Source: Amycolatopsis cihanbeyliensis
Lineage (GTDB): Bacteria; Actinomycetota; Actinomycetes; Mycobacteriales; Pseudonocardiaceae
NCBI RefSeq assembly: GCF_006715045.1
Contig: NZ_VFML01000001.1
Span: forward strand, 5,614,001 to 5,678,000
Direction: 5' to 3'
DNA: 64,000 nt
Positions within the stretch are counted from its first letter, which is position 1, and the number at the start of each line of letters is the position of its first letter. Under the pieces are notes generated by a model. The model was not told the origin of the DNA. It worked only from the letters and a program-made list of their open reading frames with translations, and searched no databases. Below, in pieces: positions 2,630-25,912 of the stretch. A program made the position numbers and the translations under genes.

Positions 2630-3256
2630 ATGTCGAGACTGACCCGCGCCGAGAGCCAGGCTCGCACCCGCGACTCCCTGGTCGCGACCGCGCGCGAGCT
2701 GTTCCTGCGGGACGGGTACAGCGCCACCTCGCTGGCGAAGGTGGCCGATGAGGCCGGGTTCTCCACCGGCGCCGTGTACTCCAACTTCCAGGGCAAGAGC
2801 GCACTCGCGCTGGTGGTGCTGGACCAGATCCACGCCGAGCAGCTGGACGAGGTCCGGGCGATCTTCCTCGGCGACCGCCCGGTCGAGGACAAGCTGGCGG
2901 CCTTCGAGAAGTGGGCGAACACCGCGATGAGCAGCGGCTGGCCGCGACTGGAGCTGGAGTTCGCGCTGGAGGCCCGGCAGGAGCCGGAGCTGGTGAACGC
3001 GCTGGCCAACCGCGAGCGCGTGGCCGTGGAGCTGATCGCGGAGTCCTTCGAGCGGCAGCTACACGGCCTCGGGCTTACCGGGCTGCTGCCGGCGAAGGCA
3101 CTGGCCGGCGCCGTGGTCAGCCTCGGTATCGGCATCGCGATCCAGCGTCTCGTCGACCCGAAGGTCTCGGTCAGCGGGATCATCGACCTGCTGCGCGCGG
3201 CGTGGCAGGTGGCCGGCAGGGGAGGGCCTGGAACGGGAGGGCACAGCGGTGAGTGA
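2630..3256 (+). CDS. TetR/AcrR family transcriptional regulator
   Basis: A 208-residue regulator with an N-terminal TetR helix-turn-helix: TRDSLVATARELFLRDGYSATSLAKVADEAGF, then STGAVYSNFQGK (residues about 13-58). The C-terminal ligand domain is not diagnostic. It is divergent from the SDR/acyl-CoA synthetase operon, which it most likely represses, with an acyl-CoA or related lipid as candidate inducer (inference). Its stop overlaps the GTG of the decarboxylase by 8 bp, so the two are probably co-transcribed. Confidence 0.88.
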   Translation: MSRLTRAESQARTRDSLVATARELFLRDGYSATSLAKVADEAGFSTGAVYSNFQGKSALALVVLDQIHAEQLDEVRAIFLGDRPVEDKLAAFEKWANTAMSSGWPRLELEFALEARQEPELVNALANRERVAVELIAESFERQLHGLGLTGLLPAKALAGAVVSLGIGIAIQRLVDPKVSVSGIIDLLRAAWQVAGRGGPGTGGHSGE

Positions 3257-4712
3257 GCACATGACGCCGGAGGAGTTCCGCGCGCACGGCAAGCGCGTGG
3301 TGGACTGGATCGCCGACTACCTCACCCGGGTCGAGTCCTATCCGGTGCGCTCGCCCTCCCGGCCCGGCGAGGTGCGGGCGGCGCTGCCAGGGCACCCGCC
3401 CGAGCACGGTGAGCCCTTCGACGCCGTGCTGGCCGACCTGGAGCACACGATCCTGCCCGGGGTCACGCACTGGCAGCACCCGAGCTTCTTCGCCTACTTC
3501 CCGTGCAGTTCCTCCGGTCCCGGCATCCTCGGCGACCTGCTTTCCGCCGGGCTGGGCGTGCAGGGCATGGTCTGGGCCACCAGCCCCGCGTGCACCGAGT
3601 TGGAGACCGTCGTGGTGGACTGGCTCGCCGAACTCCTCGGCCTGCCGACAGGTTTCCGCACCGACTCGGCGGGCGGCGGGGTGATCCAGGACTCCGCGTC
3701 CAGCGCGAGCCTGGTCGCCCTGCTGGCCGCCCTGCACCGGGCGAGCGGTGGCAAGATCGCCACCGAGGGGATCACCGGGCGGTACACGGTCTACGTCTCC
3801 TCGCAGACCCATTCCTCGCTGGAGAAGGCGGGCCGGATCGTCGGCATCGGCTCGAACAACGTGCGGGTGGTCGAGGCCGACCCGGACACGCTGGCGATGG
3901 ACCCGGCGCAGCTGCGCGCGCTGATCGGCGCGGACGTGGCCGCCGGTGCGGTGCCCGCGATGGTCTGCGCCACCGTGGGAACCACCTCGACCACCGCGAT
4001 CGACCCGGTGGCCGCGCTGGGCGAGGTGTGCCGGGAGTACGGGGCGTGGCTGCATGTGGACGCCGCCTACGCGGGGGTGGCGGCGGTCTGCCCCGAGCTG
4101 CGCTGGATCAACGAGGGGGTGCACGAGTACGCCGACTCCTACGTGACCAACCCGCACAAGTGGCTGCTGACCAACTTCGACTGCACCGTGCTCTGGCTGG
4201 CCGACCGGGAACCGATGATCGACGCGCTCGCCATCCTCCCGGAGTACCTGCGCAACTCGGCGACCGAGTCCGGCGAGGTGATCGACTACCGGGACTGGCA
4301 GGTACCGCTGGGTCGTAGGTTCCGCGCGCTCAAGCTGTGGTCGGTGCTGCGCTGGTACGGCGCGGAGGGGTTGCGCGCGCACATCCGGCGCGGGGTCGCG
4401 CTGGCCGCCGAGTTCGCCGACCTGGTCCGCGCCGACGCCGACTTCGCGTTGCTGGAACACCACCCGCTCGGTCTGGTGTGCTTCCGCCCGCGCTGGCCGG
4501 GACTGTCCGATGCGGACGCCGGCGCGGCGACGATGGCGGTGCTGGAGCGGCTGAACGACTCCGGCGAGCTGTACCTGAGCCACACCAAGGTACGCGGCGA
4601 GGTGTGGCTGCGGCTGGCCATCGGCGGGCCGGCCACCGAGCGCGGGCACGTGCTGGACGCACTCGCGGCGATCCGCCGGTTCACACGTGCAGTACGAGAT
4701 GGGCGATCGTGA
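3249..4712 (+). CDS. Pyridoxal-dependent decarboxylase (aromatic-L-amino-acid type)
   Basis: A 487-residue group II PLP decarboxylase. It opens with the family pattern MTPEEFRAHGKRVVDWIADYL, has HPSFFAYFP near residue 80, the cofactor-binding HVDAAYAG near 265 and the Schiff-base lysine in NPHKWLLTNFDC near 300. The likely reaction is loss of CO2 from tyrosine, tryptophan or DOPA; which one is not visible. GTG 3249 has GGGAGG eight bases upstream; ATG 3261 is an alternative. The gene overlaps the TetR gene by 8 bp, and its 3' end overlaps the convergent mgtE by 32 bp. Confidence 0.88.
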   Translation: MSEHMTPEEFRAHGKRVVDWIADYLTRVESYPVRSPSRPGEVRAALPGHPPEHGEPFDAVLADLEHTILPGVTHWQHPSFFAYFPCSSSGPGILGDLLSAGLGVQGMVWATSPACTELETVVVDWLAELLGLPTGFRTDSAGGGVIQDSASSASLVALLAALHRASGGKIATEGITGRYTVYVSSQTHSSLEKAGRIVGIGSNNVRVVEADPDTLAMDPAQLRALIGADVAAGAVPAMVCATVGTTSTTAIDPVAALGEVCREYGAWLHVDAAYAGVAAVCPELRWINEGVHEYADSYVTNPHKWLLTNFDCTVLWLADREPMIDALAILPEYLRNSATESGEVIDYRDWQVPLGRRFRALKLWSVLRWYGAEGLRAHIRRGVALAAEFADLVRADADFALLEHHPLGLVCFRPRWPGLSDADAGAATMAVLERLNDSGELYLSHTKVRGEVWLRLAIGGPATERGHVLDALAAIRRFTRAVRDGRS

Positions 4713-6012
4713 AGTAGATGATCAACCCGGTGGCGTCCACCAGGGTGGTGACCAGCGGCGCGGAGATCACGGCGGGGTCGATGCGCAGGCGCTTGGCCAG
4801 CAGCGGCATGGTCGAGCCGATCATGGCGGCCCAGGCGCAGATCAGCACCAGGGAGAGCGCGACCGTGGTCGCCACCGGCACGCTCACCAGCAGCGAGCCC
4901 ACCACGAAGCCCACGGCGGCCAGCATCGCCCCGAGCAGCAGCCCCACCCGGCACTCCCGCCAGGCGACCCGCAGCACGTCCCCGCTGCGCACCTCGCCGA
5001 CGGCCAGCGCGCGCACCGCGGAGGTGGCCGCCTGCGCGCCCGCGTTCCCCCCGGTGCCCACGAGTAGTGGGATGAACAGCGCCAGCGCGGTGACCTCGGC
5101 CAGCGTGGCCTCGAAGAACTGCAGCACGTTCACGGTCAGCGTCGCGGCCACGATGAGCAGCAGCAACCAGATCGCCCGGGACCTGGCGAGTTGCGCGACG
5201 CCCGCGGACATGTAGTGCCCGCTCCACGGCTGCGCGGCGGACTGGCGGGCGATGTCCTCGGTGTCGGCCGCCTCGATCACCTCGATCGCGTCGTCGACGG
5301 TGAGCAACCCGACCACCCGGTCCTCGTTGTCCACCACCGGCAGCGCCAGCAGGTTGGTCTCCTGTAGCAGGCGGGCCGCGCCCTCCACGTCGTCCACCGC
5401 GCGCACGGTGGGGCTGTCGGCGTCGGTCAGCTCGGCGACCGGGGTGTCCTGGTCGCTCAGTACCAGGTCCCGCAGCCGCATCCGGCCGAGGTAGCGGCGC
5501 TCGTCGTCCACCACCGGCAAGGTGTAGATCGTCTCCGCGTCCGCCCCCTTGGCCCGCACCACCCGCAGTGCCTCGCCCGCGGTGAGCACATGGCGGATCG
5601 CCACGGTCTCCGGGCTCATGTACCGGCCGACCGAGTTGTCCGGGTAGCCGAGCAGCTCGGCGGTCATCCGCTGCTCCGGCGCGCTCAGCCCGGTCAGCAC
5701 CCGGTGCGCGAACTTCGCCGGTGCCTCGCCGAGCAGCCGGGCCCGGTCGTCCGGGTCCATCCGCTCGACCAGCTCGCGGAAGGCACTGTCCCGCAACCCG
5801 GAGAGCAGTTTCTGCTGGGTCGGCGGGTCGAGCTCCTCGAACGCCTCCAGCGCCCGGTTCTTGCCCAGCAATCGCAGCAGCAGCGCCGCACCGACCGGAT
5901 CGGCGCGGGCCATCTCGTCGGCGATCTCGTGCGGTGGGTGTTCCGCCAGCCATAGCTGCAGCCCGGCGATGTCGTTCTCCTCCAGCAGCTGCGGCAGGAC
6001 CTCGACCGCCAT
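4681..6012 (-). CDS. mgtE: Magnesium transporter MgtE
   Basis: A 443-residue Mg2+ channel/transporter. The N-terminal MgtE_N helical domain (MAVEVLPQLLEENDIAGLQLWLAEH) is followed by two CBS domains (about residues 130-255, with VVDDERRYLG and VVDNEDRVVGLLTVDDAIE) that sense cytosolic Mg2+. Five C-terminal membrane helices follow (about 285-443), including the pore region PLLVGTGGNAGAQAA. Length and domain order match the family. Single gene, convergent with the decarboxylase. Confidence 0.93.
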   Translation of the reverse strand: MAVEVLPQLLEENDIAGLQLWLAEHPPHEIADEMARADPVGAALLLRLLGKNRALEAFEELDPPTQQKLLSGLRDSAFRELVERMDPDDRARLLGEAPAKFAHRVLTGLSAPEQRMTAELLGYPDNSVGRYMSPETVAIRHVLTAGEALRVVRAKGADAETIYTLPVVDDERRYLGRMRLRDLVLSDQDTPVAELTDADSPTVRAVDDVEGAARLLQETNLLALPVVDNEDRVVGLLTVDDAIEVIEAADTEDIARQSAAQPWSGHYMSAGVAQLARSRAIWLLLLIVAATLTVNVLQFFEATLAEVTALALFIPLLVGTGGNAGAQAATSAVRALAVGEVRSGDVLRVAWRECRVGLLLGAMLAAVGFVVGSLLVSVPVATTVALSLVLICAWAAMIGSTMPLLAKRLRIDPAVISAPLVTTLVDATGLIIYFTIAHLVLHV

Positions 6013-16101: not shown

Positions 16102-16153
16102 TTGCACGATTGTGTGACTCCCAGACCTGCTCTGGATGCGCGAGGATTGGCGC

Positions 16154-16999
16154 ATGACCACCAGGAGTGATCCGTCGGCGATGCGCTGGCTGCTCGGCGT
16201 GGAGCTGGCACACGTCCGCAAGCACGCCAGGATGACCATCGCGCAGGCCGCCGAGGCGTCCGGGCTCACCCGCGCCAAGGTCAGCTACATGGAAACCGGC
16301 CGGTACCAGCAGTACCCGGACGACGTGGCACACGTGCTGAACACCTACGGCGCACCGCGGCAGGAGGTGGACCGGCTGGTCTCGCTGTGCGCGCAGACCG
16401 AGGGCAAGAGCTGGTGGGCGCCCTGGTCGCATGTGATGCCGGACTGGTTCAAGACCTTCGTCGGGCTGGAGGGGCTGGCCGCGGCCGAGTTCGTCTTCGA
16501 GCCGATGGTGCTGCCAGGGCTGCTGCAGACCGAGGAGTACGCGCAGGCGATCACCGAGGCCACCGGGTTCGTCCGGCGGGACCACGGCGAGCGGTTCGTC
16601 TCCTTCCGGCTGGCCAGGGCGAACCGGCTGACCGAGGAGGAGCCGCTGCAGCTGCACACGGTGATCGGCGAGGCGGCGCTGCGGTTGCAGGTCGGGACGC
16701 CGGAGGTACGCGAGGCGCAGTTCCGGCACCTGCTGAAGCTGGCCCGGCAGCCGAACGTCACCATCCAGGTGCTGCGGCCGGAGGACGGACCACACACGGC
16801 CACGATGGGCAAGTTCTCGGTGCTGGACTTCGAGCGGGCCCAGTCGATCGCCTATAACGAGCACCTGGACGGTGCGGTGTACGTGCAGGACCAGGACGCG
16901 GTACGGACCTATAAAATGGCGGTGGAGAACCTGCGGTCGGTGGCGTCCGCGCCGACCAGGTCGCTCACGTTGATCAGAGGGATGATCGACGGGACCTAG
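16154..16999 (+). CDS. XRE family regulator with DUF5753 domain
   Basis: A 281-residue protein with an N-terminal helix-turn-helix (LGVELAHVRKHARMTIAQAA, then TRAKVSYMETGRYQ, about residues 14-55). The DUF5753 domain covers about 95-275 and includes EPMVLPGLLQTEEYAQAI and VGTPEVREAQ. These proteins are very common in actinomycetes, usually next to a DUF397 gene, and several (WhiJ type) affect development. ATG 16154 is preferred because GAGG lies nine bases upstream. It probably binds the 16079-16094 palindrome. Confidence 0.88.
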   Translation: MTTRSDPSAMRWLLGVELAHVRKHARMTIAQAAEASGLTRAKVSYMETGRYQQYPDDVAHVLNTYGAPRQEVDRLVSLCAQTEGKSWWAPWSHVMPDWFKTFVGLEGLAAAEFVFEPMVLPGLLQTEEYAQAITEATGFVRRDHGERFVSFRLARANRLTEEEPLQLHTVIGEAALRLQVGTPEVREAQFRHLLKLARQPNVTIQVLRPEDGPHTATMGKFSVLDFERAQSIAYNEHLDGAVYVQDQDAVRTYKMAVENLRSVASAPTRSLTLIRGMIDGT

Positions 17000-17014
17000 C
17001 CTTGGAGGTCAGCC

Positions 17015-17203
17015 GTGCCAGCACAGGACCTGCGCGCAACCCAGTGGATCAAGAGCAGTCACAGCGCGAACAACGGCGATTGCGTCGAGGTGGCCTTCGG
17101 GACGGATCGGGTGGCCGCCAGGGACTCGAAGGACCCGGACGGCGGCGCGCTGCTGCTGTCCCCGGAAGCCTTCCGCGCCTTCCTGCACCGCGTACGCGGC
17201 TGA
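17015..17203 (+). CDS. DUF397 domain-containing protein
   Basis: A 62-residue protein with the complete DUF397 pattern: WIKSSHSANNGDCVEVAF, then VAARDSKDPDGGALLLSPEAF. It starts at a GTG 15 bp after the XRE stop with GGAGG upstream, so it is co-transcribed with the regulator. DUF397 proteins are thought to act with their XRE partners, possibly as an inhibitor or antitoxin-like unit; the biochemical role is not known. Confidence 0.9.
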   Translation: MPAQDLRATQWIKSSHSANNGDCVEVAFGTDRVAARDSKDPDGGALLLSPEAFRAFLHRVRG

Positions 17204-17246
17204 AATTCGATCGCGCGCCCGCCCGCCGCCCGGCTACACAGGCAGG

Positions 17247-18470
17247 GTGACCGATCCTTACCCGCTGCGTCCCATCACCGACGGCGAGTTCGCGGCCTGG
17301 GCGCGCATGATCGCCGACACCTACGGCATCGACCGGACCGAGGCGGAGATCGCCAACCAGCGCGCCGCCACCGAGCTGGAGCGGACCGTGGCCGCCTTCG
17401 ACGGGGACGCACCCGTCGGCGGTGCCTCGCTCTACCGCCGCCTGTTGACCGTGCCCGGCGCCGTCCTGCCGGTCGCGGGGGTGGCCACGGTCGGGGTGAC
17501 CCCGACACATCGGCGCCGCGGCATCCTCACCTCGATGATGCGCAGGCAGCTCACCGACCTGCACGAGCAGGGCGCCGAGCCGGTGGCCGCGCTGCGCCCC
17601 GCCGAGGCCCCGATCTACGGCCGCTACGGCTACGGCCCCGCCACCCGGGGCAACCAGTTCCGCTGCGACAAGTCGGCGATGAGCTTCCGCCCTGGCGTGG
17701 ACTTCGGGGAAGGGTCGATCCGGCTGCTGGACGCCGAACGGGCGCGGCCGGTGCTGGAGCGGGTCTACGACGAGGTCCGGACCCTCATGGTGGGCTGGCC
17801 CGATCGCCAGGACGCGCACTGGAACGTGCGGCTGTTCGACGAGCCGGAGGCGCGCGACGGCGCGAGCGGGTTCCGCTTCGCCGTGCACCGGGAACCGGAC
17901 GGCCGGGCCACCGGGTACGCCCTGTACCGGCACCACGAGGGCACGGTGCGAGTCGAGGAGCTGGCGGCGGTCTCCCGCACCGCGTACGCGGCGCTGTGGC
18001 GCTACCTCGCCGGGATCGACCTTGCGGGGTGGATCGAGTACGAGGGCGCGCCCGACGAGCCGCTGCCGCACCTGCTCACCGATCCGCGGGCGGCACGCTC
18101 CTGCCCGGTCGACCGGATCTGGGTGCGGCTGGTCGATGTCGAGCGGGCACTGGCCGGGCGCCGGTACTCGGTCCCGCTGGAGGTGGTGCTGGCCGTGCGA
18201 GACGCCTTCTGCCCGTGGAACACCGGCCGCTACCGGCTGCGGGCCGAGGGTGAGGAGGTCAGCTGCGAGCGAGCACAGGCCGCCGCCGACCTCGAACTGA
18301 CCTCCACCGAGCTGGGAGCCGCGTACCTCGGCGGGACATCCCTGGCCTCCCTCGGGGCCGCGGGTCTGGTACGGGAACGGCGGCCTGGAACGTTGGCCCG
18401 CGCCTCGATCGCGTTCCGGCACGACCGGGAACCGTTCTACCCGGGTGGCTGGGCCTTCCCGCTCTACTGA
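17247..18470 (+). CDS. GNAT N-acetyltransferase, Eis-like
   Basis: A 407-residue protein with the three-part Eis architecture: a GNAT domain (acetyl-CoA loop VGVTPTHRRRGILTSMMR near residue 85), a central second GNAT fold (about 155-290) and a C-terminal SCP2-like domain (about 295-407). It ends on a free carboxylate segment (GGWAFPLY) that acts as general base in this family. Relatives acetylate amines such as aminoglycosides or lysine side chains. A GTG start is used. It is a monocistronic gene just upstream of the lasso peptide cluster, with no evidence that it belongs to it. Confidence 0.88.
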   Translation: MTDPYPLRPITDGEFAAWARMIADTYGIDRTEAEIANQRAATELERTVAAFDGDAPVGGASLYRRLLTVPGAVLPVAGVATVGVTPTHRRRGILTSMMRRQLTDLHEQGAEPVAALRPAEAPIYGRYGYGPATRGNQFRCDKSAMSFRPGVDFGEGSIRLLDAERARPVLERVYDEVRTLMVGWPDRQDAHWNVRLFDEPEARDGASGFRFAVHREPDGRATGYALYRHHEGTVRVEELAAVSRTAYAALWRYLAGIDLAGWIEYEGAPDEPLPHLLTDPRAARSCPVDRIWVRLVDVERALAGRRYSVPLEVVLAVRDAFCPWNTGRYRLRAEGEEVSCERAQAAADLELTSTELGAAYLGGTSLASLGAAGLVRERRPGTLARASIAFRHDREPFYPGGWAFPLY

Positions 18471-18604: not shown

Positions 18605-18712
18605 ATGAAGTCTTACGAGGCCCCGATGCTGGTCGAGCTGGGCTCCTTCCAGGAGGCAACCGGACTGCTGCAGTTCTCCGGCAACGACCGGCTGATCCTC
18701 AGCAAGAACTGA
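18605..18712 (+). CDS. Lasso peptide precursor, citrulassin family
   Basis: A 35-residue precursor. The leader (residues 1-20) has the actinobacterial recognition pattern Tyr-x2-Pro-x-Leu-x3-Gly-x-Phe (YEAPMLVELGSF), which binds the RRE protein, and the conserved Thr at position -2 (EATG). The core, residues 21-35, is LLQFSGNDRLILSKN. Leu1 would be joined to the Asp8 side chain, giving an 8-residue ring and a 7-residue tail. It matches citrulassin A (LLGLAGNDRLVLSKN) at 11 of 15 positions, including GNDRL and SKN. Arg9 is the residue citrullinated in that family. AAAGGTGG lies five bases before the ATG at 18605; an overlapping ATG at 18602 adds one Met. Confidence 0.92.
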   Translation: MKSYEAPMLVELGSFQEATGLLQFSGNDRLILSKN

Positions 18713-18733
18713 TTTCGACGACCCACGTTGCCC

Positions 18734-20581
18734 ATGCCTGATTCAGGTGGCACCCCGAGTCACGGCGAAGCGTATTTCGCGGTTCTACCGGATCGCGATG
18801 CCGCTCTCGCCGTGGCTTCGCGGGTACGCGCGCACGGTGCCAGGACGCTGAACCACCCCTCGGGCCGCCCGTGGCTCGTCGGCCGGTGGCGGGACGACGA
18901 GATGACGGTTGCCGGGGCGGGCGAGGCGCGGATCGCGGTGATCGGCTGCTGCCCGGTCACTCCCGCCGAGTTGGCGCGCAGGGCGGAGCACCTCACCGAC
19001 CTGGCACGACTCGACGAGGTCGTTCGTGGACTGCCGGGGAGTTTCCACCTCGTGGCCACACTGCGCGGCGGATTCCGCGTCTACGGCACGGCCTCGGGGC
19101 TGCGGCTGGTGTTCCACGCCGAGGTGGGTGGAGTGACGGTCGCCGCCGACCGTGCCGACCTGCTGGCTGCGCTCGCGGGATCCGAAGTGGACGAGCGGCA
19201 ACTGGCCGCGCGGCTGCTCTTCCCGGTGCCGCATCCGGTACCGGAGACACCGATGTGGCGCGGGGTGCGGGCGGTTCCACCGGGAAGCGTCGTGACGGTG
19301 GCCCCGGACGGCAGGGCGAGCACGGTGACCCGGTGGTGGGAGCCGCCCCGGCCGGTGCGTGCACTCGCCGATGCGGCACCGTCCATCCGGGAGGCACTCG
19401 CGGCCGCGGTGGACGCGCGTACCCGCGCGGGCGGCGTCGTCGGCTGCGACCTTTCCGGCGGCCTCGACTCCACCTCGCTGTGCTTCCTCGCCGCCCGCGG
19501 CCCGGCCAGGGTGGTGGCGAGTACGTGGCCCGGCATCGACCCCGCGGACGACGACCGCGCCTGGGCCGAGCGGGCGGCCGGGCACCTGCCGGACGTCGAG
19601 CACGTCGTATGGCGGGCGGAGGCGTCCCCGCTGGTCTACGAGAAACTGCTGGAGATCGACGACCCCCTCGACGAGCCGACGATCGGAATGCTGGACAGGG
19701 CGCGCCTGCTCAGCGACCTCGAAGGACTCGCGGCCAGGGGCTGCCGTGTCCGCCTGACCGGGATCGGCGGCGATCACGTGGCGTGGTGCTCGGAGGCGCA
19801 TTACCACACGCTGCTGCGCAGGCGGCCGCTGCTCGCGATCAACAGGGCCCGCGGTTCCCGTGCCCTGTTCCACTGGTCGCTCGGTGGGATGGTCCGGGCG
19901 CTTGCCGACCGCCGTTCCTACCGCGGCTGGCTCGCCGAGGCGGCAGGCGATCTCGGCGGGCCGGCGGCGCCCCCGGTCGCCACCGCACTCGGGTGGAGCG
20001 CACCCCCTCGGTGCGCGGAGTGGGTGACCGGCCACGCGCGGAGCGCGGCGGCGGAGGTGGTCGCCGCGGCGGCCCGGGACGCCGAACCGCTGGGGCCCAC
20101 CAGGGGCGAGCACGCCGACCTCGAGCAGATCCGCTCCTGCACCCGCATCATTCGCCAGTGGGAGCAGATGAGCGCCCGCGCCGGCCTTCCCATCCAGTCG
20201 CCGTACTTCGACGACCGGGTGATCGAGGCATGCCTCTCGGTGCGCCCGGAGGACAGGGTGACGCCGTGGCGGTACAAGCCCGCGCTCGTCGCCGCCATGC
20301 GCGGCGTCGTGCCGGACGAGTGCCTCGCGCGGTCCAGCAAGGCGCAGGCCGCGCTGGACGCCGCGGCGGGCCTTCGGGAGAACCGCGGCGACCTGGCCGC
20401 GCTCTGGTCACAGTCGCGGCTGGCCGAGCTCGGGCTGGTCGACCGCGACCGGCTGCTCGACCTGGCCGCGCGACCGGCGACGCCCGAGTTGCGCACCGCC
20501 GTGCTGTACCCGGCCATCGGCTGCGAGATCTGGCTGCGGACGCTCGCGGCCCCGAAACCCCTCAATGCCAATGCCTCATGA
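18734..20581 (+). CDS. Lasso peptide macrolactam synthetase (asparagine synthase-like)
   Basis: A 615-residue asparagine-synthetase homologue that adenylates the Asp8 side chain and closes the lactam with the core N-terminus. The N-terminal half (about 1-210) is a glutamine-amidotransferase-like fold without the N-terminal catalytic Cys, as in all lasso cyclases. The ATP pyrophosphatase motif CDLSGGLDSTSL is near residue 240. A conserved C-terminal region (IQSPYFDDRVIEACLSV) is near 490. ATG 18734 is preferred; a TTG at 18728 is in frame and neither has a strong ribosome site. It lies 21 bp after the precursor stop. Confidence 0.92.
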   Translation: MPDSGGTPSHGEAYFAVLPDRDAALAVASRVRAHGARTLNHPSGRPWLVGRWRDDEMTVAGAGEARIAVIGCCPVTPAELARRAEHLTDLARLDEVVRGLPGSFHLVATLRGGFRVYGTASGLRLVFHAEVGGVTVAADRADLLAALAGSEVDERQLAARLLFPVPHPVPETPMWRGVRAVPPGSVVTVAPDGRASTVTRWWEPPRPVRALADAAPSIREALAAAVDARTRAGGVVGCDLSGGLDSTSLCFLAARGPARVVASTWPGIDPADDDRAWAERAAGHLPDVEHVVWRAEASPLVYEKLLEIDDPLDEPTIGMLDRARLLSDLEGLAARGCRVRLTGIGGDHVAWCSEAHYHTLLRRRPLLAINRARGSRALFHWSLGGMVRALADRRSYRGWLAEAAGDLGGPAAPPVATALGWSAPPRCAEWVTGHARSAAAEVVAAAARDAEPLGPTRGEHADLEQIRSCTRIIRQWEQMSARAGLPIQSPYFDDRVIEACLSVRPEDRVTPWRYKPALVAAMRGVVPDECLARSSKAQAALDAAAGLRENRGDLAALWSQSRLAELGLVDRDRLLDLAARPATPELRTAVLYPAIGCEIWLRTLAAPKPLNANAS

Positions 20582-20593
20582 CGGGAGCGGGAA

Positions 20594-20851
20594 ATGACCT
20601 TCCAGTTGCGCCAGGATGTGTCCCTCGCGGACACCGAGTACGGCACGGTGCTGCTCGACGAGCGCAGCGGCCGCTACTGGCAGCTCAATCCGAGCGGAGT
20701 GCTCGTGGTCAACACGTTGCTGGCCGGCGATGACACCGAGCAGGCCGTCACCGCGCTCACCGAGGAGTACCAGGTCGACGCGGCCAAGGCGCGCGCGGAC
20801 GTGCGCACCCTGGTGGACGGGCTCCGCTCGGCGGGCCTGGTGAGCTCATGA
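20594..20851 (+). CDS. Lasso peptide RRE protein (PqqD-like, B1)
   Basis: An 85-residue PqqD-family protein: YGTVLLDERSGRYWQLNPSG, then helices with DTEQAVTALTEEYQVD and VRTLVDGLRSAGLV. It is the RiPP recognition element that binds the leader peptide and presents it to the leader peptidase. The gene has GGGA before the ATG, is 12 bp after the cyclase, and overlaps the B2 gene by 4 bp, fitting the split B1/B2 protease of actinobacterial clusters. Confidence 0.92.
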   Translation: MTFQLRQDVSLADTEYGTVLLDERSGRYWQLNPSGVLVVNTLLAGDDTEQAVTALTEEYQVDAAKARADVRTLVDGLRSAGLVSS

Positions 20852-21282
20852 CCACGCCGAGCGCGCTCAGCAGGCCGTCCGAGGTTCCGTTCCGCCGCCG
20901 GGTCGCGGCCCGCGCCGCGGTGGCTGTCGCCAGGGCGCTCGCCACGCTGCCGCCGCAACGTGTCCGCCGGGTACTCGTGGTGCTGCGCCGGGGTGCCCGG
21001 CAGGCGACCCACCGGGAGGCCAGGTCCGCGCGGGACGCGGTGCTCGCGGTCAGCCTGACCTGCCTCGGCCCGCAGGGATGCCTGCCCCGCTCGCTCGCGG
21101 TCACCGTGCTGTGCCGGATGCGGGGGAGCTGGCCGACGTGGTGCGTCGGCGTCCGTGCCATGCCCCCGTTCGGTGCGCATGCCTGGGTGGAAGCCGGGGG
21201 CGAGCCGGTCGACGAGAACGTCCCCGCGGACTACTTCCGCAGGCTGATCGCCGTCGAGCCCGCCGGACCGGCGCGTTCATGA
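20848..21282 (+). CDS. Lasso peptide leader peptidase (transglutaminase-like, B2)
   Basis: A 144-residue cysteine peptidase of the lasso B2 family that removes the leader after the conserved Thr-Gly. The catalytic Cys is in GPQGCLPRSLA near residue 76, His in FGAHAWVE near 113 and Asp in EPVDENVP near 124. The N-terminal 50 residues form a helical arm. It is coupled to B1 and to the exporter by ATGA overlaps on both sides. Confidence 0.92.
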   Translation: MTTPSALSRPSEVPFRRRVAARAAVAVARALATLPPQRVRRVLVVLRRGARQATHREARSARDAVLAVSLTCLGPQGCLPRSLAVTVLCRMRGSWPTWCVGVRAMPPFGAHAWVEAGGEPVDENVPADYFRRLIAVEPAGPARS

Positions 21283-23072
21283 GTGAACCCGCGACCCGGC
21301 GCGACCGGGCGAGCGTGCCGGAACTGGTGCGACTGGCATCCGGCCACTCCCGGGTTCTCGCCGCCGCGATCGCACTGACGGTGCTGGCCTCCGGGCTCGG
21401 CCTGCTGCAGCCGCTGCTGGTGCGGCACGCCATCGACTCGGTGGGCCCGCAACCGCTGCACTGGACGATCCCCGCCGCGCTCGCGACGCTGTTCGCCGCG
21501 CAGGCCTGCGTGGACGCGTTCGGTCTCTTCCTGCTCGAACGCACCGGTGAGGCGGTGGTACTCGGCGTGCGGCGCGGGCTCATCGCCCGGCTGCTGCGGC
21601 TGCGGATGCGGGTGTACGACGAGCACCGACTCGGCGACCTGATGTCCAGGGTCAGCGTGGACACCACGGTGCTGCGCGAGGTGGTCACCACGGCGTCGGT
21701 GCAGCTCGTCACCGGAGCGCTGACCGGACTCGGCACGATTGCCCTGATGGTGTGGATAGACCCCATGCTGTTCCTCGTCGTCGCGGCCACCGTCGCGGCC
21801 GCGGCCGTGGTGGTGGCCGCGCTGCTCGGCAGGCTGCGGGCTGCGAGCGAGCGGGCCCAGCGCAGTGTCGGCGCGATGACCGCCGACCTGGAGCGGGCGC
21901 TCGGCGCGATCCGGACCGTGCGGGCCAGCGGGGCGGAGGAGAGGGAGGCCGAGCGGACCGGGCGCAGCGCCGAGTCGGCCTACGCCGCCGGGGTCCGTGC
22001 CGCGAAGCTCACCTCCGTGATGAGCCCCGCGGTGGAGCTGGCCCTGCGCGGCTCGCTCGTGCTCGTGCTGCTCATCGGTGGCACGATGGTCGCGCGGGAC
22101 GCCACCTCGCTCGGCAACCTGGTCGCCTTCATGCTGTACGCCACCTACCTCGTGATGCCGCTGGCTTCCGTGTTGCAGGGCGTCGGACTCGTCCAAAGAG
22201 GAATGGGCGCGTTGCAGCGCGTGCACGAGGTCACCGGGTTTCCGGTCGAGGACACCGGTGGCGGCGTGAGCGGCGGGGTTCACCGCAACGGGGCTCCGGT
22301 ATTGGAGTTCCGGGACGTCCGGTTCGCCTACCAGGACCGGCCGGTGCTGGAAGGCGTGTCGTTCGAGGTTCCGGCGCGCTCGCATGTCGCGCTGGTCGGC
22401 AGGTCCGGCGCAGGCAAGTCGACGATCTTCTCGCTGGCCGAACGTTTCTACGATCCGGCGGGAGGGTCGATCCTGCTGAACGGCAGCCGGGAAGGTGACC
22501 TGAGCCGCGCCGAATGGCGTTCCCGGATCGCGCTGGTCGACCAGAATTCCCCCGTCCTACACGGAACGCTCCGGGACAACCTGTGCTACGCCGCCCCTGA
22601 CGCCGGTCCCGATGAACTGCGCTGGGTGGTGGATCTGGTCAATTTGCGGGAACTGGTCGACCGGCTGCCGCTCGGGTTGGACACCCCGGTCGGTGAGCGC
22701 GGATGCCGCCTTTCCGGTGGCGAGAGCCAGCGGGTCGCGATCGCGCGCGCGTTGCTGAGCAAGCCCGACCTGCTGCTGCTCGATGAACCGACCGCACATC
22801 TCGACGCCATCAACGAGGCGGCGCTCGCCGCGGCCATCGACCAGGTCAGGACCGAGTGCGCGTTGCTGGTCATCGCGCACCGGTTGTCCACCGTGCGCAG
22901 GGCAGGGCATGTCGTGCTGCTGGACTCCGGAAGGGTGGTGGCAACCGGGGAACACGATAAACTGTTGGACAGAAATTCACAGTATCGCGATCTTGTCGCA
23001 GTGCGGTTTGACGGAGGTCGCCGTTATTCGAAAAACGCGAAGCACTTTCGTGCGACCGAGGTTACGGACTGA
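21279..23072 (+). CDS. Lasso peptide ABC exporter (fused membrane and ATPase domains)
   Basis: A 597-residue type IV ABC half-exporter. Six membrane helices lie in about residues 25-310. The nucleotide-binding domain follows from about 335, with Walker A GRSGAGKST, signature LSGGESQRVAIARALL, Walker B LLLLDEPTAHLD and switch His in VIAHRLSTV. It would export the mature lasso peptide and give self-protection. The start at the ATG overlapping the B2 stop is chosen over longer open sequence upstream, which is a shadow of B2. Confidence 0.92.
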   Translation: MSEPATRRDRASVPELVRLASGHSRVLAAAIALTVLASGLGLLQPLLVRHAIDSVGPQPLHWTIPAALATLFAAQACVDAFGLFLLERTGEAVVLGVRRGLIARLLRLRMRVYDEHRLGDLMSRVSVDTTVLREVVTTASVQLVTGALTGLGTIALMVWIDPMLFLVVAATVAAAAVVVAALLGRLRAASERAQRSVGAMTADLERALGAIRTVRASGAEEREAERTGRSAESAYAAGVRAAKLTSVMSPAVELALRGSLVLVLLIGGTMVARDATSLGNLVAFMLYATYLVMPLASVLQGVGLVQRGMGALQRVHEVTGFPVEDTGGGVSGGVHRNGAPVLEFRDVRFAYQDRPVLEGVSFEVPARSHVALVGRSGAGKSTIFSLAERFYDPAGGSILLNGSREGDLSRAEWRSRIALVDQNSPVLHGTLRDNLCYAAPDAGPDELRWVVDLVNLRELVDRLPLGLDTPVGERGCRLSGGESQRVAIARALLSKPDLLLLDEPTAHLDAINEAALAAAIDQVRTECALLVIAHRLSTVRRAGHVVLLDSGRVVATGEHDKLLDRNSQYRDLVAVRFDGGRRYSKNAKHFRATEVTD

Positions 23073-23170
23073 TATCCCCTGGATGGACCTTTGAGGACAT
23101 CGGTTGACCTGATACAAAATACGATGTGCGAAGCCGATGACCAGATGGATTCAAGGGAGCGAATTCGACC

Positions 23171-23851
23171 GTGCCTAGTATTCCATCGGAGTCCACCCGT
23201 TTTCGGGCTCACGGGGAATTCGTCGACATCCTGCGGGATCGTTCCGACGTGCTGCATCGGCTGCGGCGGCTCGCCTGCCGGGCGACCTCGGTGGACGCGG
23301 CGCTGTCCGGGCATGGGGTGCGGTTGCCGAGCCATGACTCCTCCCTGCTCGAGTTGCTGGCCGTCGCCGGAAGGCGGCGGCGCCTGCTCGTCGACACCCA
23401 GTTCGCGCGGAGCGAGCTGATGGCGGGCGATGCGGTAACGCGACCCCGCCGGGTCCGGGTGCACGAGCACTCGCTGCGACGCATGCTGATCTTCGACGAC
23501 CGCTGCGCGATCCTCCCGCTCGACCAGGCCGGCTGGGATGCGGGCGCGGTCCTGCTGCGCGCACCGCTCGCCGGACCCTGCGGGCAGCTCTTCGACTTCC
23601 TGTGGTCCGAGGCGCGTCCGCTCACCGATGACCTCCGGTGCGACGCCGGCCTTTCGGACCGCCAACTCGAGGTGGTGTACCTCCTGCTGCAGGGCGCGAC
23701 CGACCAGCAGGTCGCCGACCGGATCGGAGTGAGCAGCCGCACCGTACGCAGCATGGTGTCGACGTTGCAGCGGCGGTTCGGCACCAGCTCGCGGATGGCG
23801 CTCGGCTTCCGGCTCGCCCGTGCCGTCACCAGCGGATCGGAGCAGCACTAG
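23171..23851 (+). CDS. LuxR-type regulator of the lasso cluster
   Basis: A 226-residue protein with a C-terminal LuxR helix-turn-helix (GLSDRQLEVVYLLLQGATDQ, then GVSSRTVRSMVSTLQRRFG, about 160-215). The N-terminal 150 residues form a phospholipase-D-like/TrmB-type sensor fold seen in orphan LuxR proteins near RiPP clusters, without a receiver Asp. It starts at GTG 23171 with GGGAG about 11 bases before. It lies 98 bp after the exporter on the same strand, with a TTGACC promoter-like element at 23104, so it probably has its own promoter. Confidence 0.82.
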   Translation: MPSIPSESTRFRAHGEFVDILRDRSDVLHRLRRLACRATSVDAALSGHGVRLPSHDSSLLELLAVAGRRRRLLVDTQFARSELMAGDAVTRPRRVRVHEHSLRRMLIFDDRCAILPLDQAGWDAGAVLLRAPLAGPCGQLFDFLWSEARPLTDDLRCDAGLSDRQLEVVYLLLQGATDQQVADRIGVSSRTVRSMVSTLQRRFGTSSRMALGFRLARAVTSGSEQH

Positions 23852-23926: not shown

Positions 23927-24016
23927 TTACGGTTGCTGTCGGTGGCTCGTCGTAGAGTCATCGTCGCGCCGACAGCACGGCTCGCACACGCCCTACCGAG
24001 ACGGGGGAACCGCGCC

Positions 24017-25912
24017 ATGGACATGGAAACCACCGCATGGATGTCGCTCTACCATTCCATGCACGCACAGCAGGACCGGCGGCCGTTCTCCAAACAGACC
24101 CTGCGCCGGATCGGCGGGTTCGCCCAGCCGCATCGCAAGAAGCTCGGCTGGTTCCTGGTGCTCAGCGTCGCCATGGCGTTCCTCGCGGTCGCCACACCGG
24201 TGCTCGCGGGCCAGGTGGTGGACGCCATCGTCGGGGATGCGCAGACCAGCGTGGTGGTCGGGATCGCCGTGCTGATCGCCGCGATCGCGCTGGCCGAGGC
24301 AGGGATCGGGCTGCTGAACCGTTGGCTGTCCGCGCGGATCGGTGAGGGGCTGATCGTCGACCTGCGTACCTCCGTGTTCGACCACGTACAGCGGATGCCG
24401 GTCGCCTTCTTCACCCGTACCCGCACCGGTGCGCTGGTCAGCAGGCTGAACAACGATGTGATCGGCGCGCAGCGGGCGTTCAGCGACACGCTGTCCGGGG
24501 TGGTCAGCAACCTGGTGATGCTGGTGCTCACCGGCGTGGTGATGCTCGGGATCTCCTGGCAGGTCACCCTGCTCGCGCTGGCGATGCTCCCCCTGTTCGT
24601 GTACCCGGCGCGGCGGATGGGCACCAGGCTGGCCCGGCTGGAGCGCGAGGCGGCCAACCACGATGCCGCGATGGGCACCCAGATGACCGAGCGGTTCTCC
24701 GCCCCGGGCGCGACCCTGGTGAAGCTGTTCGGCAAGCCCGAGCGGGAGTCGGCCGCGTTCGCCACCAGGGCCCGCCGGGTGCGGGACATCGGGGTGCGCA
24801 CCGCGATGGTGCAGCACGTCTTCATCACGGCGCTCACTCTGGTCTCGGCGTTGGCCTTGGCGCTGGTGTACGGGTTCGGCGGGTACTACGCGCTGGTGGG
24901 GGAGCTGGACGCAGGCTCGGTCGTGGCCCTGGCCATGCTGCTGACCCGGCTGTACGCCCCGCTGACCGCGCTGGCCAGCGCCCGGGTCGAGGTGATGAGC
25001 GCGCTGGTGAGCTTCTCCCGCGTGTTCGAGGTGCTGGACCTGAAGCCGCTGGTGGCCGAGAAGCCAGAACCCAAGCCCGTGCCGGACGGCGGGATCTCGG
25101 TGGAGTTCGAGGGAGTGCGCTTCGCCTACCCCTCGGCGGACAAGGTGTCGCTGGCCTCGCTGGAGGAGGTCGCCACCCTGGACAACCGGGGCGGGGTGGA
25201 CGTGCTGCACGAGGTGTCCTTCCGCGCGGAGCCGGGGCAGATGGTGGCGCTGGTCGGCTCCAGCGGTGCGGGCAAGTCGACCATCGCGCAGCTGGTACCG
25301 CGGCTGTACGACGTGGACGAGGGCACCATTCGACTGTCCGGTGTGGACGTACGGGACCTTTCCCTGCAATCGATCAGGGACACGATCGGCATGGTGACCC
25401 AGGACGGGCACCTGTTCCACGATTCCGTGCGGGAGAACCTGTTGCTCGCCCGCCCCGAGGCGTCCGAGGAGGACCTGTGGGAGGTGCTGCGCAGGGCGCG
25501 GTTGGACGGCCTGATCGCCGGCCTGCCGGAGGGGCTGGACACTATCGTCGGCGAGCGTGGCTACCGGCTCTCCGGTGGCGAGCGGCAACGGCTGACGATC
25601 GCGCGCCTGCTGCTGGCCCGGCAGCGGGTGGTGATCCTGGACGAGGCGACCGCGCACCTGGACTCCACCTCGGAGGCCGCCGTGCAGGAGGCGCTGACCG
25701 AGGCGCTGGAGGGTCGGACCGCCGTGGTGATCGCGCACCGGCTGTCCACCGTGCGGGCGGCGGACCAGATCCTGGTGGTCGAGGCGGGACACATCGTGGA
25801 GCGGGGCACGCATGAGGAACTGCTCGCGGCCGGTGGCCGGTACGAGGAGCTGTACCGCACCCAGTTCGAGCAGCCGGGAACCGCGGAACCCGCTCCGGTG
25901 GCGAGCGCGTAA
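24017..25912 (+). CDS. ABC transporter, fused permease and ATPase (multidrug-exporter type)
   Basis: A 631-residue half-transporter. Six membrane helices occupy about residues 35-320. The ATPase domain from about 360 has Walker A GSSGAGKST, Q-loop GMVTQDGHLF, signature LSGGERQRLTIARLLL, Walker B RVVILDEATAHLD and VIAHRLSTVR. An insert of about 20 residues follows RFAYPSADKVSLASLEEV. ATG 24017 is preferred; the frame is open 28 codons upstream but those residues are Arg-rich and unlike the family. It is separated from the lasso LuxR gene by its own promoter, so it is probably not part of the cluster. Confidence 0.88.
   Translation: MDMETTAWMSLYHSMHAQQDRRPFSKQTLRRIGGFAQPHRKKLGWFLVLSVAMAFLAVATPVLAGQVVDAIVGDAQTSVVVGIAVLIAAIALAEAGIGLLNRWLSARIGEGLIVDLRTSVFDHVQRMPVAFFTRTRTGALVSRLNNDVIGAQRAFSDTLSGVVSNLVMLVLTGVVMLGISWQVTLLALAMLPLFVYPARRMGTRLARLEREAANHDAAMGTQMTERFSAPGATLVKLFGKPERESAAFATRARRVRDIGVRTAMVQHVFITALTLVSALALALVYGFGGYYALVGELDAGSVVALAMLLTRLYAPLTALASARVEVMSALVSFSRVFEVLDLKPLVAEKPEPKPVPDGGISVEFEGVRFAYPSADKVSLASLEEVATLDNRGGVDVLHEVSFRAEPGQMVALVGSSGAGKSTIAQLVPRLYDVDEGTIRLSGVDVRDLSLQSIRDTIGMVTQDGHLFHDSVRENLLLARPEASEEDLWEVLRRARLDGLIAGLPEGLDTIVGERGYRLSGGERQRLTIARLLLARQRVVILDEATAHLDSTSEAAVQEALTEALEGRTAVVIAHRLSTVRAADQILVVEAGHIVERGTHEELLAAGGRYEELYRTQFEQPGTAEPAPVASA

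What the first reader, a model, noticed from the sequence alone, without database searches (positions are those of the whole stretch)
18605..23851. New citrulassin-family lasso peptide cluster with core LLQFSGNDRLILSKN
Seen: a 35-codon precursor with the Y-x2-P-x-L-x3-G-x-F leader and Thr at -2, followed by cyclase, RRE protein, leader peptidase and ABC exporter in tight order. Established: citrulassins share LLxxxGNDRLxLSKN cores with a Leu1-Asp8 ring. Inference: this variant (Gln3, Phe4, Ser5, Ile11) is a distinct member; differences lie in the ring face and one tail residue. The precursor gene is below usual annotation length and easily missed.
Basis: partly seen in the sequence, partly recalled or inferred. 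Interest (0 to 1): 0.85.

Follow-up and report, generated by a model that had tools for sequence, protein, structure and literature searches.

The report
Ordinary citrulassin-type lasso peptide cluster
This is a complete gene set for making a small knotted peptide of the already known citrulassin family; a sister species carries the same 15-residue core, and the host shows no sign of the enzyme that would give the peptide the family's signature citrulline.

Summary
A 35-codon precursor (18605-18712; leader MKSYEAPMLVELGSFQEATG, core LLQFSGNDRLILSKN) is followed on the same strand by lasso cyclase, RRE protein, B2 peptidase, ABC exporter and a LuxR-type regulator. The cyclase lies in a fully supported citrulassin clade. 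Of 44 distinct cores compiled (this one included), six differ from it by one residue.

Three corrections. (1) The core is not unique: it is also encoded in a sister genome whose chromosome length (7,657,695 bp) equals that published for Amycolatopsis aidingensis, where a citrulassin B-like cluster was listed in 2021. (2) No peptidyl-arginine deiminase (PAD) was found in the host (99.52% complete) or the sister. The same search found one in 7 of 29 citrulassin-cluster genomes and agreed with published calls for five named strains. The expected product is des-citrulassin (Arg9; [M+2H]2+ 850.478), not the +0.984 Da form. (3) The precursor is found by Pfam PF19397 and NCBIfam NF033521.

Verdict: new member of a known kind, low interest. 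The core was not found in the open-access library; supplements and most subscription papers were not searchable.

The parts
18605..18712 (+). lasso precursor A: 20-residue leader, core LLQFSGNDRLILSKN
   Evidence: identical core in sister genome G102
18728..20581 (+). lasso cyclase (C), TTG start listed; in-frame ATG at 18734 also possible
   Evidence: PF00733; 63-70% identical (best segment) to the 24 named loci; inside the 32-row citrulassin clade, support 100/100
20594..20851 (+). RRE / PqqD-like leader-binding protein (E, B1)
   Evidence: PF05402, NF033530 above cut-off
20848..21282 (+). leader peptidase (B, B2), overlaps the RRE gene by 4 bases
   Evidence: PF13471, NF033537 above cut-off; Cys and His motifs
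21279..23072 (+). ABC exporter (D), overlaps B2 by 4 bases
   Evidence: PF00664 and PF00005; 49-73% identical genes at the same place in 19 of 24 named loci (L012 ends inside the cyclase, L023 is fragmentary, L005, L018, L019 have none there)
23171..23851 (+). LuxR-type (GerE) regulator gene, probable part of the cluster in this lineage
   Evidence: PF00196; a homologue (40-63% identity) downstream of the cluster in 11 of 24 named loci, L001-L008, L016, L020, L024

Best explanation
It is a complete, conserved citrulassin-type lasso peptide gene cluster in an Amycolatopsis-type genome, most likely A. cihanbeyliensis. The RRE protein binds the leader motif, B2 cuts after Thr(-2)-Gly(-1), the cyclase activates Asp8 with ATP and closes an 8-residue ring from Leu1 to Asp8 around the tail, and the ABC protein exports the product. 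As the genome has no detectable PAD, Arg9 should stay arginine, so the product is a des-citrulassin of monoisotopic mass 1698.942. Shown here: genes, order, motifs, clade, lack of a PAD match. Inferred from the family: leader binding, cleavage site, ring, threading, export. Not known: expression and biological role.
For: Gene content and families; same gene order in relatives with citrulassin-type cores; cyclase tree, 32-row clade at 100/100; intact copy in the sister at about 90% DNA identity with an unchanged core. PAD: 0 matches in the own genome with PF03068 and with a full-length Amycolatopsis xylanica PAD even at E 10. The same PF03068 search agreed with the published table for five named strains (A. 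xylanica Y, Lechevalieria/Lentzea xinjiangensis Y, Longimycelium tulufanense N, Prauserella shujinwangii N, Yuhushiella/A. arida CGMCC 4.5579 N; four matched by collection number, A. xylanica by species and core). The review passage says that strains lacking pad correlate with the Arg form. Check of the mass arithmetic: my citrulassin N [M+2H]2+ of 820.9519 equals the published calculated value.
Against: Nothing found speaks against the assignment, but the cyclase scores below the one NCBIfam subfamily cut-off. The 14 control genomes of the PAD search gave no match, so its sensitivity rests on the positives. An unrelated deiminase, or a PAD in the unassembled part, is not excluded; mentions one citrulassin producer without a pad gene. 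Production was not observed.
Confidence: 0.93

Rival explanations
1. The host does make the citrulline form, through a PAD that is missing from the assembly or through an unrelated deiminase.
For: One search reports one exception to the pad/citrulassin correlation; the assembly is 99.52% complete, not 100%.
Against: No PF03068 match, and no match to an Amycolatopsis PAD at E 10, in the own genome or in the sister's single-contig chromosome. Other deiminase families were not searched.
Confidence: 0.06
2. The cluster is a decaying or silent remnant that makes no peptide.
For: No expression data; the citrulassin-type peptide of S. leeuwenhoekii was not detected and not obtained in S. coelicolor (PMC6856326 passages). 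B2 and RRE show only mild constraint against the sister: 25 synonymous to 21 non-synonymous and 11 to 7 changed codons.
Against: All five genes are open with motifs intact; the core has one synonymous and no non-synonymous change, and the exporter 101 synonymous to 45 non-synonymous changed codons.
Confidence: 0.05
3. A lasso peptide of another, new family that merely resembles citrulassins.
For: The NCBIfam cyclase subfamily score is below cut-off.
Against: The core fits LLxxxGNDRLxLSKN at every fixed position and the cyclase lies inside the citrulassin-linked clade.
Confidence: 0.01

Closest known systems
Citrulassin N (Streptomyces sp. NAX00255), core LLQSSGNDRLILSKN (PMC12971885)
   Same: 14 of 15 core residues, same gene logic, 8-residue ring and 7-residue tail
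   Different: Phe4 instead of Ser4; that strain has a PAD and makes citrulline, none was found in this genome
Amycolatopsis xylanica cluster, core LLGFSGNDRLILSKN (Table 1 of PMC12971885; L003)
   Same: 14 of 15 core residues, same order including the LuxR gene
   Different: Gly3 instead of Gln3; PAD present
   Same: identical core, about 90% DNA identity
   Different: Val for Ala at leader position -3
Citrulassin A, core LLGLAGNDRLVLSKN (quoted in PMC6856326)
   Same: family type member
   Different: Gly3, Leu4, Ala5, Val11; citrullinated

Membership tests
Lasso peptide clusters of the actinobacterial A-C-E(B1)-B(B2)-D type | precursor, cyclase, RRE, B2 peptidase encoded together | tested here: met
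Citrulassin family | core LLxxxGNDRLxLSKN with Asp8 and Arg9 | tested here: met
   compared with 44 distinct cores (this one included)
Citrulassin family | cyclase groups with citrulassin cyclases | tested here: met
   32-row clade at 100/100 in the 44-row tree, midpoint root; the citrulassin A cyclase itself was not in the tree, so this rests on the linked cores
Citrulassin family | PAD gene elsewhere in the genome, giving citrulline at position 9 | tested here: not met
   0 matches in the own genome. Absence is common in the family: 19 of 34 strains in the published table, 22 of 29 genomes here. So it is filed as a PAD-less, des-citrulassin member, not as a citrulline-bearing one
Citrulassin family | Leu1-Asp8 macrolactam, threaded tail | not testable with these tools
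   needs the peptide

The most novel reading that the evidence does not exclude
In this two-species lineage the unmodified Arg9 peptide is the functional end product, so citrullination is an optional, patchily acquired add-on of the citrulassin family and not its purpose.
Probability: 0.45. Interest if true: 0.25.

Novelty: new member of a known kind. Interest (0 to 1): 0.12.

Why it matters
It adds one core sequence, a ready mass prediction and a pair of sister species without a detectable PAD to a family with many listed members. Its one use is as a natural Arg9 control for asking what citrulline does for a citrulassin. It is otherwise ordinary.

Tried and rejected
Does the core predict whether a PAD is present? 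In the published table PAD was nominally commoner with Arg4 (12 of 20 against 3 of 14, Fisher p 0.038); in my 29 genomes it was not (2 of 9 against 5 of 20, p 1.0). In mine no Gln3 core had a PAD (0 of 13 against 7 of 16, p 0.008), but in the published table Gln3 made no difference (8 of 17 against 7 of 17, p 1.0), and citrulassin N itself has Gln3. Neither holds in both sets, the two sets share at least five strains, and relatedness was not corrected for; both rejected.

Second ABC gene at 23933-25912 as part of the cluster: not supported. In the 24 named loci its matches at the cluster are those of the paralogous exporter (26-36%); closer homologues (72-75%) were seen only at the ends of L004 and L023, on the other strand. 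It is kept in the sister (96%), but so are other neighbouring genes.

One search was a mistaken query: the first 100 codons of L026 belong to a neighbour of the PAD gene, so its matches (6 of 6 genomes) say nothing about PAD. One search repeats it with the PAD itself.

Full report
Observation. The 35-codon gene at 18605-18712 reads MKSYEAPMLVELGSFQEATG-LLQFSGNDRLILSKN. Pfam places all six above its cut-offs; NCBIfam does so for the precursor, RRE and B2, while the cyclase's best NCBIfam subfamily model is below its cut-off (258.6 against 300) and no NCBIfam model listed for the exporter or regulator reaches its own (for the exporter the best 25 of 186 were shown). Motifs expected from general knowledge of these enzymes are present.

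Relatives. A scan of genome contigs with the cyclase gave 24 loci, 63-70% identical, from Amycolatopsis, Prauserella, Lentzea, Longimycelium, Actinomadura and others. A precursor of this type sits just upstream in 22 of 24, one of them with a diverged core (L005); the two without one are incomplete matches. A family-wide search (390 genomes) found 90 with a match at E 1e-100 or better; 18 of these are at 62% identity or more and the rest, apart from one broken fragment (G245, 60%, left out), at 48% or less. Of the 18 precursors, 16 read [LF]LxxxG[NR]DRLx[LF]SKN and two diverge (G105, G091). An even draw of 394 genomes of the class gave 7 besides the own one at E 1e-190. In a tree of 44 cyclases the window lies in a 32-row clade supported at 100/100; it holds the citrulassin-linked rows, the two diverged ones (L005, L047), and L068, for which no precursor was recognised. 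Left out of the tree: L012, L021-L023, L048 as incomplete or short, and copies of genomes already present.

How new is the core? Among 44 distinct core strings, this one included (34-row published table of PMC12971885, of which I read parts 1-3 of 4, plus 29 genomes here), six differ from this core by one residue. Each of its variable residues is common at its position: Gln3 20, Phe4 8, Ser5 14 and Ile11 34 of 43 fifteen-mers. A full-text search for the whole core found no paper, and one for its last ten residues found two. The protein collection holds the identical precursor as one cluster of two member sequences (P0001), whose longest contig, 6,286,745 bases, is the window's own contig length; the other member was not traced.

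The sister. Genome G102 encodes the identical core with one leader change. Its single contig is 7,657,695 bp long, exactly the chromosome length published for Amycolatopsis aidingensis YIM 96748 (abstract and passages of PMC8685341). That paper lists two lasso clusters and a citrulassin B-like cluster; G102 has two cyclase matches, of which the second is only 42% identical, so the listed one is probably this. The matching DNA is about 90% identical (pieces of 90-95%); the paper gives 88.97% ANI between A. aidingensis and A. cihanbeyliensis. The window is therefore probably A. cihanbeyliensis (inference; no tool gave a name).

Citrulline. The family's signature needs a PAD encoded elsewhere (PMC9266682 passages). 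Pfam PF03068 found none in the window's genome. The 14 control genomes gave no match either, so I used known positives: among the 18 genomes, A. xylanica and Lentzea xinjiangensis have it and Longimycelium, Prauserella shujinwangii and A. arida do not, as published. 17 of the 24 named loci were given to this search; L012, L014, L015, L018 and L021-L023 were not. A full-length A. xylanica PAD finds nothing in the own or sister genome even at E 10, while it finds its own genome and Lentzea xinjiangensis. Over the family, 5 of 18 citrulassin genomes have a PAD above cut-off against 25 of 372 others (30 of 390 over cut-off, 32 at E 0.001; Fisher p 0.008, relatedness not corrected). Together 7 of 29 distinct citrulassin genomes have one (copies of one genome under named and unnamed handles were merged by match coordinates or by precursor and size). 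So the host should make the Arg9 form: monoisotopic 1698.942, [M+2H]2+ 850.478; the citrulline form would be 850.970.

Neighbourhood. A LuxR-type homologue lies downstream of the cluster in 11 of 24 named loci: in 11 of the 12 from Pseudonocardiaceae-like hosts (one filed as Nocardia sp.; the miss, L023, lacks other cluster genes too) and in 0 of the 12 others, of which L012 and L015 end too early to tell. It is likely a lineage-specific regulator. The upstream acetyltransferase is in the sister and in none of the 24 named loci; the helix-turn-helix gene at 16136-16999 is in neither, where the sister alignment has a gap. Neither is likely to belong to the cluster.

Verdict. A genuine but ordinary member of a known and actively mined family.

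Noticed in passing
L005 7869-11400 (Amycolatopsis anabasis): A citrulassin-clade cluster whose core has diverged (YLTGRGDDRLVPGKY), with a LuxR gene after B2 and no exporter homologue beside it (only weak ABC matches some 3.6 kb or more downstream on the other strand); the genome has a PAD.
   Followed up: partly
G000:C1:1152500-1163000 (L069 about 2820-5515): The same genome has a second lasso cluster: cyclase 41% identical, RRE and B2 homologues, precursor candidate ending SIVVVIADGTSNRGWF.
   Followed up: partly
L047 (G091): Citrulassin-clade locus with His instead of Arg at core position 9 (FLGRRGRDHIVLSKH) and one TGA counted inside the cyclase match.
   Followed up: no
L018, L019: Citrulassin clusters of Actinomadura geliboluensis and Planomonospora sp. 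without an exporter homologue next to B2.
   Followed up: no
L068 (G714): A second citrulassin-clade cyclase (58%) in one genome, for which the precursor pattern found no precursor.
   Followed up: no
window 16136-18470: Upstream helix-turn-helix gene, DUF397-like small gene (both names recalled, not from a call) and GNAT/Eis-like acetyltransferase; the last two are kept in the sister, none of the three was matched in the 24 named loci.
   Followed up: no
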